The translations under genes and the position numbers were made by a program. This document shows positions 4,545 to 44,722 of a stretch of DNA of 64,000 nucleotides, piece after piece. Position 1 is the first letter of the stretch, and every line of letters begins with the position of its first letter. The notes under the pieces are model-generated. The model had not been told where the DNA came from. It saw only the letters and a list, made by a program, of their open reading frames with translations, and did no database searches. The stretch is from Colwellia sp. 39_35_sub15_T18 (GTDB taxonomy: Bacteria; Pseudomonadota; Gammaproteobacteria; Enterobacterales; Alteromonadaceae), in NCBI GenBank assembly GCA_002162675.1, contig MAAE01000040.1, forward strand, positions 1 through 64,000, read 5' to 3'.

Positions 4545-5123
4545 TTATTCAATAGCTATCTTTCGCTCCTCAATCAGGGGCTTATGCCAACGTTCACTCT
4601 CAGCTTCAGAGTCTAACGGCGTTCCAGCCACTGAATTGGTATAGTTACTGATTAGCTTTATTGCCAGACCCAAGATGACTTCCAATACCTGTGCATCTGT
4701 GTACCCTGCATCGAGAAATATCTGTAGTTGTGTCTCAGATACTTTTCCACGATTTGCCAACAAACCACGAGTAAAGTTAGATAGCTCATTTAACTTGGCG
4801 TTTGCTATTTTACCTCCGTTTCTAAGCGCTAAAAGGTCATCTTTAGACATACCTAATTGTTTGGCTAAAATACTGTGCCACGGCACACAATAGCTGCATT
4901 CGTTCTCGTAGTTTGCTGTAAGATAAACAACCTGACGCTCAATAGCCGTAAGGGATGTTGTGTCAAATTGCTCCCACATAAATGTGTATCCAGCTAGCAA
5001 CTGTGGTGATAGTGCCATTACCTTTTCAACATTTGGGATCATGCCAAAATTTTCTTTAGCCTGAGCTAACCACTGTAACGAAGCTTGAGGCGCATTCGAC
5101 TCATCAAGTAAAGGAAAATTCAT
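4545..5123 (-). CDS. Carboxymuconolactone decarboxylase / AhpD-like family protein
   Basis: Small helical protein of the AhpD/CMD family, members of which act as thiol peroxidase partners or decarboxylases. The redox signature is visible as Cys76-x-x-Cys79-x-x-x-His83 (ENECSYCVPWH), the AhpD-type active site. Length 192 is typical. Its start codon overlaps the stop of the upstream SDR gene by one base (TAATG), which implies translational coupling and shared function. A role in peroxide or electrophile defence is inferred from the motif and from the azoreductase in the same set. There is no signal peptide, so it is cytoplasmic. Confidence 0.85.
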   Translation of the reverse strand: MNFPLLDESNAPQASLQWLAQAKENFGMIPNVEKVMALSPQLLAGYTFMWEQFDTTSLTAIERQVVYLTANYENECSYCVPWHSILAKQLGMSKDDLLALRNGGKIANAKLNELSNFTRGLLANRGKVSETQLQIFLDAGYTDAQVLEVILGLAIKLISNYTNSVAGTPLDSEAESERWHKPLIEERKIAIE

Positions 5124-11967: not shown

Positions 11968-12068
11968 GTCATAAGTTTTTTGTCACTCAAATAAAGAAAT
12001 AACACTTGCTATTTACGCTCAGCTGTTGATAATCGCGTGCTGTAAAGAAAACTCATTAATTTTTAATG

Positions 12069-12196
12069 TTATGACGCTAAAAATGTCATATTTGGGAATG
12101 TGGTGAAAAACCACAACTGTGCCCGCAACTGTAAGTCAGTGTCTAATACATGCTTAATTTTGAGCTGTTTTTGATATTAACAAGTCAGGATACCCA
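12069..12196 (+). ncRNA. Cobalamin riboswitch 1 (upstream of the btuD-btuC-cob operon)
   Basis: The leader shows the adenosylcobalamin aptamer core: GGGAATGTGGTGAAAAACCA, then GCCCGCAACTGTAA (12121-12134) and the B12-box-like AAGTCAGGATACC (12182-12194). A stem TTCGAG/CTCGAA (12222-12227 with 12235-12240) lies just after the aptamer and may be part of the expression platform. High B12 should repress the downstream btuD-btuC-cobTSUQ-btuF genes. The boundaries are approximate. Confidence 0.92.
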
Positions 12197-12334
12197 TTAA
12201 TAAATTAATCAACTATATTAATTCGAGCGGGTTACTCGAACACTGTATATTCATTCGCTTGTTGTTTAACTGATGTTAACAGCAAAGAATCGACTGTGCG
12301 TTGTTTGACCGCGGCAAGAATAAGCGAGTGAACA

Positions 12335-19351: not shown

Positions 19352-19482
19352 CAAGCAGTGGAAATTATTCCACTTTATTATGGTAGGCAACGAGGGAAAC
19401 CTATGCAAATTAGGTACTGCCCCCGCAACGGTAATAACTCATCGATGTGCTAATGAGTTTAAGTCCGACATCTTGTGCTTAC
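19352..19482 (+). ncRNA. Cobalamin riboswitch 2 (btuB leader)
   Basis: The aptamer core ACTGCCCCCGCAACGGTAA (19416-19434) is a close match to the cobalamin riboswitch consensus. GGGAAACCTATGCAAATTAGGTACT forms the usual preceding stem, and AAGTCCGACATC (19461-19472) takes the B12-box position. It lies directly before btuB, so B12 should switch off its own outer-membrane receptor. Boundaries approximate. Confidence 0.92.
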
Positions 19483-19488
19483 TTAATT

Positions 19489-19543
19489 ATCACTGAGCTA
19501 AATATAAACAGCTCAGTGATCAACATGATGCGGAGGGCATCAT
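19489..19543 (+). promoter_or_regulatory. Two leader hairpins between riboswitch 2 and btuB
   Basis: First, a perfect 11-bp stem at 19489-19499 with 19510-19520. Second, a 7-bp stem at 19525-19531 with 19537-19543 whose loop is exactly GGAGG. The btuB ribosome site GCGAGG lies a few bases further on, before ATG 19557. The hairpins are candidates for the riboswitch expression platform; that role is inferred. Confidence 0.55.
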
Positions 19544-31993: not shown

Positions 31994-32251
31994 CCCATAA
32001 TTTTGACAAGAAGAAAAATAAATCTGAAACTAGTTTGATAGATAAATATACTATTTACAAGGTGTTTTTACGTGTATTTTTGGTTTTCTTTGTCTTTTTA
32101 TGTATATTAAATTCTATATTTATCAGATGGCTACATAAAAGTTATATAATGTGACGGTTTGCTTGTATTCATCTGTTATGCCATGATTTTTCGGGTATAA
32201 CAGTTTACTGTTGGAAGTATTGTTTCTGTTTGTTTTCATCAGTTTTAGCAC

Positions 32252-32386
32252 TGTTTTGAGGGTTTAAACGTTAACTGCTGAAACTGCACTTTTTGTTTGT
32301 GTAAAACCGTTTTACCAATGTTTTGAGCGTTTAGGCACTAACTGCTGAAACTGACCTTTTTGTTTGTGTAAAAACCGTTGTGCCCA
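32252..32386. repeat. 67-bp tandem duplication
   Basis: Two head-to-tail copies, each beginning TGTTTTGAG and containing ACTGCTGAAACTG and TTTTTGTTTGTGTAAAA. The first is 32252-32318 and the second 32319-32386, with about ten differences. A fragment of a third may precede them (TTTGTTTTCATCAG). No open frame is kept. Confidence 0.7.
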
Positions 32387-42681: not shown

Positions 42682-42990
42682 ATGACTCAACGCACCGTTG
42701 AAATTAATGTGACTGATCGCAAACTAAAAGTTGCCTGTCCTATTGGGCAAGAAAGCGCATTACTTAGTGCGGCGGCAGAATTAAGTGTGCGCTTAACTAA
42801 GGCTAACAATAACAAATCTATTGCCACACCTGAGCAAGCATTGTTAATGACGGCACTTAATTTAACCAATGAGCTATTAAACGCAAAACAGCAACTGCAA
42901 GCTGAAAAAAAAGAAAATAAGCAAAAAATTGCTTTACTACAATCAACTATCGAACAAGCTTTAATTCCTTTGCATAATAAACAGGCTTAA
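42682..42990 (+). CDS. zapA: Cell division protein ZapA
   Basis: Binds FtsZ and promotes Z-ring bundling. The N-terminal MTQRTVEINVTDRKLKVACPIGQE is the usual ZapA globular part, and the C-terminal half (LLNAKQQLQAEKKENKQKIALLQSTIEQ) is the coiled coil that makes the tetramer. Length 102 is typical. It stands divergent from ygfB and upstream of 6S RNA, the same order as in enterobacteria, which supports both calls. Confidence 0.95.
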   Translation: MTQRTVEINVTDRKLKVACPIGQESALLSAAAELSVRLTKANNNKSIATPEQALLMTALNLTNELLNAKQQLQAEKKENKQKIALLQSTIEQALIPLHNKQA

Positions 42991-43132
42991 GTGCTTGTTT
43001 CTCTCTCGAGATTAAATAAATATTTACTGCTAATTGCTTAAGTTAACAGCATAAAATGTTTAAATACAGAACACTTAGCACTTGCTGGTGAAAAAACACT
43101 TAATTCAGCTGAATTTTTCGTTATAATGATTT

Positions 43133-43313
43133 CTGTCTTCTGGGATGTTTGTATGCGAACTATGTCCCTGAGCCGATAAGTTTTACCTTAGGGAGTTGAC
43201 TAATAGCTATTGCGCAAGCCCGGCTCGTATCGGGAAGCCTACGGTTAATATGATACTTCCGCCCTGAACACACGGTGTTCAGGACTATGTAAGCTGCGGC
43301 ATTCTGGAAGTCA
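43133..43313 (+). ncRNA. ssrS: 6S RNA
   Basis: Small RNA that mimics an open promoter and sequesters sigma-70 RNA polymerase. CCCTGAGCCGATA (43166-43178) is identical to the E. coli 6S motif, and GGGAAGCCTACGG matches its other conserved side. The ends pair through 43137-43147 with 43300-43310 (11 pairs counting G-U), closing the long helix. A TATAAT box at 43122-43127 sits the right distance before the proposed 5' end. It lies downstream of zapA, as in E. coli. The usual fau/ygfA gene does not follow; a repeat array does. Confidence 0.93.
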
Positions 43314-43785
43314 CTTATTACTTAGTCATATTATTTCAAGATAAACTACGGTGAGCTGCGGCGCTGAATAGCACTAGGGAAGTCACTTATTACTTCACTA
43401 CTTATAATATACTTTCAGGATTAAACTATTGTGAGCTGCGGCGCTGAATAGCATTCGGGAAGTCACTTATTACTTAGTCATATTATTTCAAGATAAACTA
43501 CGGTGAGCTGCGGCGCTGAATAGCACTCGGGAAGTCACTTATTACTTCACTACTGATAATATACTTCCAGGATTAAACTATTGTGAGCTGCGGCGCTGAA
43601 TAGCATTCGGGAAGTCACTTATTACTTAGTCATATTATTTCAAGATAAACTACGGTGAGCTGCGGCGCTGAATAGCACTAGGGAAGTCACTTATTACTTC
43701 ACTACTGATAATATACTTCCAGAATTAAACTATTGTGAGCTGCGGCGCTGAATAGCACTCGGGAAGTCATTCACTTTTTCTGTTT
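43292..43785 (+). repeat. Higher-order tandem array derived from the 6S RNA 3' end
   Basis: AGCTGCGGC recurs at 43292 (inside ssrS), 43354, 43434, 43506, 43586, 43658 and 43738. The steps are 62, 80, 72, 80, 72 and 80 bases. From 43354 on, an 80-bp type and a 72-bp type alternate, giving a 152-bp period. Each unit has GGGAAGTCA like the 6S terminus, and the array units carry a roughly 10-nt insertion after AGCTGCGGC. The 72-bp spacer is nearly identical to the sequence just after ssrS. Confidence 0.92.
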
Positions 43786-43909
43786 TTACTCCTTACTCCT
43801 TACTCCTTATTCACCACTTATTACTTGCTAATATTCCCTCAAGATCAACCTATTATGAGCTGCTTGTAAAGCAACACTCTGAAAGTCATTTCTGTGTTAT
43901 TATCTCATC
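43786..43909 (+). repeat. Degenerate end of the 6S-derived array
   Basis: After a run of CCTTACTCCTTACTCCTTA, the array text returns (CACTTATTACTTGCTAATATT) and a last AGCTGC at 43858 is followed by ACTCTGAAAGTCATTT, which resembles the 6S 3' end again. It reaches the murI start, so the murI promoter must lie in or before it. Confidence 0.6.
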
Positions 43910-44722
43910 ATGAATACAACTCAAACATTTGATAACCGCTCAATAGGTATTTTTGACTCAGGTATTGGCGGCTTATCTATAGCTAAGCGCATTAGTGAGC
44001 AATTACCCCACGAAAATTTGATCTATGTGGCGGACAGTCAACATGCTCCTTATGGGGAAAAATCTACGGGGTTTATTACCGAACGCGTCAATCTCATCGC
44101 TCAACAATTGATCAAACAAGAGTGTAAAGCTTTAGTTATCGCCTGCAACACCGCAACCGTTAATGCCATTAGCCAATTAAGATCGCAAGTTGATATTCCC
44201 ATTATAGGCGTAGAGCCGGCAATAAAACCGGCAGCAAAACAGAGTATAAATAAGAAAGTGGCGGTTTTAGTTACCCAAGCAACCAGTCAAAACCCAAATT
44301 TTCAACGCTTAATTGACAGACATCATAATGGTGCTCTTGTTACTATTCAGCCCTGCCCAGGTTTAGTCGAGCTAATTGAGCAAGGAAAACAACACAGTGA
44401 CCAATGCTATCAGTTGCTTAAAAAGTATCTTGAACCCTTGATGTCTGCAGGAGTTGATACTTTAGTGCTTGGTTGTACTCATTATCCTTTTGTTTTAGAA
44501 GCGATTACTTCAATTACCGGCGGCCTGATCCACGTTTTAGAAACCGCCACGCCAGTGACTAGTTATTTATCTAGGCAATTGAAAGATAAAGGCTTATCAG
44601 CAAACGTCAAACAAACTGGACAGCATCAGTTTTTTAGCTCAAAAGTGAGTGAACACCAACAACAACTTTTTAGCCAACTTTGGCAGGCGCCATTAACAGT
44701 AAACGCTTTAACAATTCTATAA
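43910..44722 (+). CDS. murI: Glutamate racemase
   Basis: Supplies D-glutamate for peptidoglycan. The two catalytic cysteines are in VIACNTATVNA (Cys79) and VLGCTHYPF (near 190), with Asp16 in GIFDSGIGGLS and the APYGEKS loop. Length 270 is standard. The gene begins directly after the 6S-derived repeat array. No operon partner is evident. Confidence 0.97.
   Translation: MNTTQTFDNRSIGIFDSGIGGLSIAKRISEQLPHENLIYVADSQHAPYGEKSTGFITERVNLIAQQLIKQECKALVIACNTATVNAISQLRSQVDIPIIGVEPAIKPAAKQSINKKVAVLVTQATSQNPNFQRLIDRHHNGALVTIQPCPGLVELIEQGKQHSDQCYQLLKKYLEPLMSAGVDTLVLGCTHYPFVLEAITSITGGLIHVLETATPVTSYLSRQLKDKGLSANVKQTGQHQFFSSKVSEHQQQLFSQLWQAPLTVNALTIL

What the first reader, a model, noticed from the sequence alone, without database searches (positions are those of the whole stretch)
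43292..43909. Tandem array that amplifies the 3' end of 6S RNA
The 3' strand of the 6S closing helix plus its downstream spacer is repeated six times in alternating 80- and 72-bp units (152-bp period), with a last degraded unit touching murI. Array units carry a 10-nt insertion absent from the true 6S end, and the 80-bp type has a TATAAT-like ATAATATA. If transcribed, the copies could extend, compete with or decoy the 6S terminus, or supply repeated processing or termination sites. The fau gene that normally follows ssrS is absent here.
Basis: partly seen in the sequence, partly recalled or inferred. Interest (0 to 1): 0.8.

Follow-up and report, generated by a model that had tools for sequence, protein, structure and literature searches.

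The report
Repeats of 6S RNA's tail end

Summary
In detail: six copies of the 6S (ssrS) 3' strand at 43354-43769 in alternating 72- and 80-bp steps, plus a degraded seventh before murI. It is not a local oddity. Of 39 genomes of the window's genus (Colwellia group), 31 have such arrays; 6 have ssrS without a unit. Three other genera of the family have them, and so do two other families: f9 (6 of 7 in one genus) and f11 (5 of 23). None was found in 94 genomes of 48 other genera of the family, or in 41 genomes of 22 other families. Units follow their own species' 6S end (concerted evolution). In the Colwellia group they share a block absent from 6S that replaces one arm of the 3' central-bubble hairpin; the window's units are a truncated derivative lacking it. 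I found no self-structure, ORF or intrinsic terminator, and no integrase in the sampled neighbours. Spacers are G-poor, and the tail before murI is strongly C-rich and G-poor. Best reading: a recombining, partly conserved repeat in the ssrS trailer, probably a Rho-type termination and 3'-end-formation zone. A near-neutral satellite is almost as likely. Transcription is untested.

The parts
42682..42990 (+). zapA, upstream neighbour of ssrS
   Evidence: PF05164 ZapA, 56.4 bits
43134..43314 (+). 6S RNA gene (ssrS)
   Evidence: RF00013, 89.4 bits, E 2.1e-16
43292..43313 (+). true 6S 3' strand, the sequence repeated in the array
   Evidence: sequence and alignment
43354..43385 (+). array unit 1, 6S-like core with 10-nt insertion
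43434..43465 (+). array unit 2, 6S-like core (80-bp type)
43506..43537 (+). array unit 3, 6S-like core (72-bp type)
43586..43617 (+). array unit 4, 6S-like core (80-bp type)
43658..43689 (+). array unit 5, 6S-like core (72-bp type)
43738..43769 (+). array unit 6, 6S-like core (80-bp type)
43770..43835 (+). C-rich, G-poor tract (27% C, 3% G), possible Rho loading site
   Evidence: the largest C-minus-G excess between 6S and murI is the 60-mer starting at 43791; about 0.04% of the window's 60-mers (every fifth start, either strand) reach it
43857..43889 (+). degraded seventh unit
   Evidence: alignment; BLAST of the array also finds 43815-43863
43910..44722 (+). downstream gene, read as murI (glutamate racemase)
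   Evidence: PF01177 Asp/Glu/hydantoin racemase, 83.2 bits

Best explanation
The array is this species' version of a repeat that looks old in the Colwellia group and recurs at ssrS in other lineages. A unit is a copy of the 3' strand of 6S (end of the apical stem, 3' side of the central bubble, closing-stem strand) plus a G-poor spacer. Shown: in the genomes searched, units lie downstream of ssrS or at contig ends, follow the 6S end of their own species, share a non-6S block in the Colwellia group, and differ in number between near relatives. Inferred: units expand, shrink and are homogenised by recombination or slippage between the 6S end and its copies. Inferred: the array is transcribed as the 3' trailer of 6S, and the unstructured C-rich, G-poor stretches act as a reiterated Rho-type termination and 3'-end-formation zone before exonucleases trim back to the 6S closing stem. 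The window's units are read as a shortened derivative, and its strongest Rho-like tract lies behind the array at 43770-43835.
For: Clade-wide occurrence: units beyond the 6S end in 30 of 39 genomes of the genus by model R1, plus the window's truncated type; also in g8, g26 and g35. Two further families: f9 and f11. None in 94 genomes of 48 other genera or 41 genomes of 22 other families. Single-contig assemblies carry arrays (G010, G014, G021, G045, G330; contig counts; units), so they are not assembly artefacts as such. Apparently distant units lie at contig ends. Concerted evolution: in 38 of 39 units tested no other species' 6S end is closer than the own one; mean identity 0.93 against 0.82, permutation maximum 0.867. 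Non-6S block: mean identity 0.69 in 111 species pairs with 4-fold zapA identity below 0.45, against 0.56 for spacers of those pairs and 0.53 for shuffled blocks over all 253 pairs. Spacers 5.6% G and 25% C (50 spacers, 25 loci). No intrinsic terminator, no unit self-structure, no ORF of 25 aa. E. coli ssrS ends by Rho-dependent termination according to the title of Chae 2011, seen only in a reference list.
Against: No transcript data. Six genomes of the genus with ssrS lack a unit, and the window's species has lost the conserved block, so the unit is dispensable. C-over-G excess downstream of ssrS is no higher in array loci than elsewhere (median 0.20 in 30 array loci, 0.22 in 7 array-less loci of g1 and g8, 0.20 in 133 others), so arrays are not needed for Rho-type tracts. 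In the window the array itself is not G-poor (20.7% G); only its tail is. Block conservation rests on non-independent pairs, and spacers had no shuffle control of their own. The downstream gene varies.
Confidence: 0.42

Rival explanations
1. Near-neutral recombinational satellite. The end of ssrS is prone to tandem duplication; copies expand, contract and are homogenised with the 6S end, with no function of their own.
For: Copy number 0-6; near relatives G003 and G012 have 2 and 0 (G012 is a draft, and by eye its flank keeps the start of a unit). The first 10 nt after each unit are homogenised within species (0.82 identity to own 6S flank against 0.42). No unit in six genomes of the genus. Lineage-specific inserts. 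No structure.
Against: Retention across four genera; a block not present in 6S keeps 0.69 identity in distant pairs while 4-fold zapA sites average 0.43 over all pairs; recurrence at ssrS in two further families, while tmRNA, the one other stable RNA tested in this genome, has no 3' repeats.
Confidence: 0.35
2. Decoy or alternative 3' strand. Transcribed units pair with the 6S 5' strand, in cis or trans, giving 6S forms without the 3' central-bubble hairpin that drives release from RNA polymerase.
For: Units span about the 3' side of the bubble plus the closing strand. The outer 5' arm of that hairpin is replaced in the Colwellia group and f9, and by eye altered in three of the five f11 genomes with units (G345, G348, G358). 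The hairpin matters for release in E. coli (model cited in PMC8876501, passages seen).
Against: The in silico preference for pairing away from the own strand also appears with shuffled trailers, so it is not evidence. The window's units lack the whole bubble part, and two f11 genomes (G330, G354) keep much of the hairpin. Co-transcriptional folding should favour the own strand.
Confidence: 0.1
3. Attachment-site remnants. Units are scars of mobile elements that integrate at the ssrS 3' end.
For: 3' ends of stable-RNA genes are common integration sites (recalled). Downstream genes differ between species. One genome has an inverted 6S end about 710-770 nt downstream.
Against: Of 10 downstream proteins chosen from the clusters, none matched an integrase in Pfam; 7 had matches, all of other kinds, 3 had none. 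No distant partner copy in 39 genomes, only contig ends. No match of the window's 6S and array in 50,697 phage records; unit pattern in 0 viral contigs.
Confidence: 0.07

Closest known systems
E. coli tyrT 3' repeats (rtT RNA region), recalled
   Same: Tandem repeats directly behind a stable-RNA gene, each holding a copy of that gene's 3' end; Rho-dependent termination there (recalled).
   Different: 6S instead of a tRNA; other unit lengths (72 and 80 bp here, mostly 87-152 in relatives, 178 recalled for tyrT); no peptide ORF in the window; present across a genus and in two further families. No paper on the tyrT repeats was found to compare with.
6S RNA / ssrS trailer of E. coli (Rho-dependent termination, Chae 2011, title only)
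   Same: Same gene; no intrinsic terminator found here; C-rich, G-poor tract downstream.
   Different: E. coli has fau/ygfA downstream (title of Chae 2011). No repeats were seen in four loci of family f18 (L171, L174, L175, L182), whose 6S end reads like that of E. coli as I recall it.
Attachment-site duplications at stable-RNA genes (recalled)
   Same: Duplicated 3' end of a stable-RNA gene.
   Different: No integrase among the neighbours sampled, no distant partner site, short regular periods.

Membership tests
6S RNA (RF00013) | covariance-model score above the gathering cut-off | tested here: met
   43134-43314, 89.4 bits against 46.4
6S RNA (RF00013), for the array units | own match to the model | tested here: not met
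   one 6S match in the window at the gathering score and one in the genome
rtT/tyrT-type repeat | tandem copies of the 3' end of the preceding stable-RNA gene | tested here: met
   (6S instead of a tRNA)
rtT/tyrT-type repeat | Rho-dependent termination inside the repeats (recalled feature) | not testable with these tools
   composition only:
rtT/tyrT-type repeat | short peptide ORF in the repeat (recalled feature) | tested here: not met
   no ORF of 25 aa or more in 43290-43909 on either strand
mobile-element attachment-site duplication | integrase or element between copies, or a distant partner copy | tested here: not met
   10 chosen downstream proteins and all units found in 39 genomes
mobile-element attachment-site duplication | match in phage or viral sequence | tested here: not met
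   no phage match; unit pattern 0 contigs; the 6S-end pattern hit 6 viral contigs, where my rough estimate expects a few by chance; these were not read
intrinsic terminator array | G+C-rich hairpin followed by a T run | tested here: not met
   0 found in 42990-43960

The most novel reading that the evidence does not exclude
The units are functional RNA: alternative 3' strands of 6S, mostly without the release hairpin, kept in step with the 6S 5' strand of their own species by concerted evolution, and selected repeatedly in (perhaps cold-adapted) marine Gammaproteobacteria to tune the amount or behaviour of 6S RNA.
Probability: 0.1. Interest if true: 0.85.

Novelty: new variant of a known kind. 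Interest (0 to 1): 0.6.

Why it matters
6S RNA is one of the most widespread bacterial regulators, yet how its 3' end forms outside E. coli is, to my knowledge, little studied. A recurrent repeat of its own 3' strand, kept across four genera and seen in two further families, suggests that the ssrS trailer is either under selection or unusually prone to duplication; both can be tested with 3'-end mapping. Concerted evolution with the array may also shape how the 6S closing stem itself evolves.

Tried and rejected
Folding competition: in partition functions of 6S plus array, own-strand pairing of the 6S 5' strand was 0.12 or less at 37 C in all 17 loci with counted units, and in most of them the strand went to a downstream unit (18 loci were given, but the window locus L009 yielded no counted unit). 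Dinucleotide-shuffled trailers abolished own-strand pairing just as well (means over 17 loci 0.05 with array, cut at 450 nt; 0.07 over 68 shuffles; 0.84 for 6S alone; detail). The test cannot tell array from any trailer and I do not use it.

Unit self-structure: RNAalifold on 35 units gave no pair; two window units folded alone do no better than shuffles (z 1.29 and 1.05), nor does the tail (z -0.13). A small AU inverted repeat before CCGC scores 6 or more in 22 of 41 distinct units, against 8% of shuffles, and in 13 of 25 species, mostly close relatives; I treat it as unproven.

tRNA arrays like rtT in the same genome: suspected from weak tmRNA-model hits, but the places read are ordinary tRNA genes. 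tmRNA has no 3' repeats (best downstream score 15). rnpB and other stable RNAs were not tested.

Rho score: C-over-G excess does not separate array from non-array loci, so composition supports a Rho-type trailer in general, not the array in particular.

Coding repeat: some periods are multiples of three, others not; no ORF of 25 aa in the window array.

Literature: '6S RNA' with 'ssrS' and 'tandem repeat' gave 4 papers, none on this by title and abstract start; '6S RNA' with 'Colwellia' gave 0; '6S RNA', 'ssrS', 'genomic island' and 'integrase' gave 2, none on this by title and abstract start. For '6S RNA' with Psychromonas, Moritella or Shewanella, none of the 10 listed of 408 holds '6S RNA'; the rest were not seen. 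tyrT searches listed 15 of 489 and 8 of 16 papers, none on the repeats by title and abstract start, so all statements about rtT are recalled.

Full report
OBSERVATION. The array is real and at the stated place. 6S RNA is a full-length RF00013 match at 43134-43314. Tandem Repeats Finder reports 43299-43769 as 3.1 copies of a 152-bp unit at 97% match. Landmarks of the 6S end recur at alternating 72- and 80-bp steps, six copies plus a degraded seventh. Units carry a 10-nt insertion between GCGGC and GGAAG. zapA lies upstream and a racemase gene read as murI starts at 43910; Pfam agrees with both. There is no ORF of 25 aa or more in 43290-43909 on either strand, no intrinsic terminator and no + strand promoter-like site. 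In the own genome the array query matches elsewhere only at the degraded copy and at chance-level places with E above 1.

THE FEATURE BELONGS TO THE GENUS. A DNA search of 39 genomes of the window's genus found extra copies of the 6S end beside ssrS in many of them. I call the genus Colwellia because contigs of named Colwellia records (and one Litorilituus MAG) have the same lengths as contigs of nine of its genomes. Reading the loci showed that species have their own spacers and periods, mostly about 87 to 152 bp, around a common unit. A sequence model of 35 units found units beyond the 6S end itself in 30 of 39 genomes. Seven show only the 6S end: the window's genome G000 (whose units are truncated and escape the model), G004, G007, G012, G025, G036 and G037. 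G026 has no match, and G031 has a fragment at a contig start. Counting the window, 31 of 39 have arrays and six have ssrS without a unit; by eye G012 keeps the start of one. In the family-wide model search the genera with more than the 6S match are g1, g8, g26 and g35.

CONTROLS. With the last 65 nt of each genome's own 6S as query against its own downstream sequence, the best score in 266 shuffles was 25; in 261 upstream or reverse-complement controls it was 29, apart from one score of 97 that turned out to be an inverted copy in G058. At a threshold of 30, one locus per genome and at least 250 nt downstream, hits occur in 27 of 34 g1 genomes, 5 of 6 g8, 2 of 2 g35 and 2 of 5 g26, against 0 of 94 genomes from 48 other genera of the same family and 0 of 41 genomes from 22 other families; five genomes with shorter flanks were set apart, and the window's own truncated array counts as 0 by this test. 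Single-contig genomes carry arrays (G010, G014, G021, G045, G330; contig counts; units), so arrays are not assembly artefacts as such, though copy numbers in draft genomes may be wrong. Units that seemed to lie elsewhere sit at contig ends, where assemblies break at the repeat.

TWO FURTHER FAMILIES. The order-level survey found similar arrays in family f9: 6 of 7 genomes of its genus g60, up to five 82-bp copies, and 0 of 5 genomes of its other genera. Family f11 has them in 5 of 23 genomes with a 6S hit, 24 searched. These counts use a threshold of 28; the weakest f11 locus has copies scoring 29 to 40. From genome length alone I take G330 (4,559,598 bp) for Psychromonas ingrahamii 37 and G010 (5,373,180 bp) for Colwellia psychrerythraea 34H; both lengths are recalled, and a table in PMC7542103 gives 34H as 5.37 Mb in one scaffold (passage seen). 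The loci of genus g60 have 42-45% G+C; I do not name it. Whether the arrays go with cold adaptation is a guess.

ANATOMY OF A UNIT. In the Colwellia group a full unit runs from about ATATTTCCGC, through the 3' side of the central bubble, to the closing-stem strand ending GGAAG. Compared with 6S, the outer 5' arm of the 3' central-bubble hairpin (CCTGAA) is replaced by a block like GC-nn-CTCTAGAAAAG. In f9 the corresponding arm is also replaced, by another sequence. In f11, read by eye, it is altered in three of five genomes (G345, G348, G358) and largely kept in two (G330, G354). In E. coli this hairpin promotes release of 6S from RNA polymerase: PMC8876501 describes the model of Panchapakesan and Unrau, in which disrupting the hairpin moves sigma ejection from a 9-nt to a 14-nt product RNA (passages seen). 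Several species have further inserts in the same two places. By eye, the window's units align with ATATT...TTCA(a/g)GA...GTGAGCTGCGG and lack the middle of the unit, so I read them as a shortened derivative; its nearest relative in a small YgfB+ZapA tree of 32 loci, G030, has one full unit (branch supports were not examined).

HOW IT EVOLVES. Units resemble their own species' 6S end: in 38 of 39 units tested (of 53), no other species' 6S end is closer; mean identity is 0.93 to the own and 0.82 to others, and the permuted maximum is 0.867. The ten bases after GGAAG match the own 6S flank at 0.82 and other species at 0.42. This is concerted evolution by recombination or slippage across the 6S end and its copies (inferred). 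Copy number changes fast: G003 has two units and its near relative G012 none. Yet the non-6S block keeps 0.69 identity in 111 distant pairs, where spacers give 0.56; over all 253 pairs shuffled blocks give 0.53, and 4-fold sites of zapA average 0.43. 6S does not contain the block, so copying from 6S cannot explain it; this is the main argument for some selection. It is weakened by the non-independence of pairs, by the lack of a shuffle control for spacers and by the loss of the block in the window.

HOW IT MIGHT WORK. The window array is non-coding and the units have no consensus fold; window units fold no better than shuffles. Spacers contain 5.6% G and 25% C (50 spacers in 25 loci), against 14.7% G and 23.9% C just downstream of ssrS in other genera. 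In the window the tract behind the array, 43770-43835, has 3% G and 27% C, and only about 0.04% of 60-mers in the window reach the C-G excess found there. With no intrinsic terminator found, Rho-type termination before murI is the likeliest way for ssrS transcription to end, as reported for E. coli ssrS in Chae 2011 (title seen in the reference list of PMC10670590; the paper itself is not held). On this view the array is part of the trailer of 6S. Against a special role for the repeats, the same C-over-G excess is found downstream of ssrS without arrays. fau (PF01812) is present in 39 of 39 genomes of the genus; of the 37 with a 6S hit it lies on another contig in 34 and more than 230 kb away in the three single-contig genomes. 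The gene that follows the array differs between species, so the array goes with ssrS and not with its neighbour.

WHAT I REJECTED. A folding test for competition between units and the true 3' strand failed its control. Attachment-site scars are unlikely: no integrase among 10 chosen downstream proteins (three of which had no Pfam match), no distant partners, and no phage or viral unit match.

VERDICT. A genuine, clade-wide and recurrent repeat of the 3' strand of 6S RNA behind ssrS. I put 0.42 on a retained trailer element (Rho-type termination and 3'-end formation, with recombination keeping it in step with 6S), 0.35 on a near-neutral satellite, 0.10 on an RNA decoy or alternative strand and 0.07 on integration scars. 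It works like the tyrT/rtT repeats of E. coli as I recall them, and is not a member of that family. Searches showed no report of it in the open-access library, as far as their listings go; subscription journals were not searched.

Noticed in passing
L064 (G058, genus g21), about 710-770 nt downstream of ssrS: An inverted copy of the 6S 3' end (56 of 60 nt) lies near the contig end; a possible inverted duplication or integration scar.
   Followed up: partly
G000:C56 about 4730-4800 (L270): A degenerate tRNA-Gly-like sequence, seen by eye, lies between tRNA-Tyr and an intact tRNA-Gly.
   Followed up: no
L040, L043, L044, L050, L052: In these five of 14 named Colwellia/Litorilituus loci no 6S gene was found on zapA's strand within 3 kb (the other strand was not searched). 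In C. maritima (L052, taken as G007) ssrS lies about 70 kb away on the same contig, so the zapA-ssrS pair is not fixed in the group.
   Followed up: no
window 12047-12215 and 19353-19489 (+): Two cobalamin riboswitches (RF00174; 60.1 and 39.6 bits).
   Followed up: no
window 32242-32379: A 67-bp tandem duplication, two copies at 85% match.
   Followed up: no
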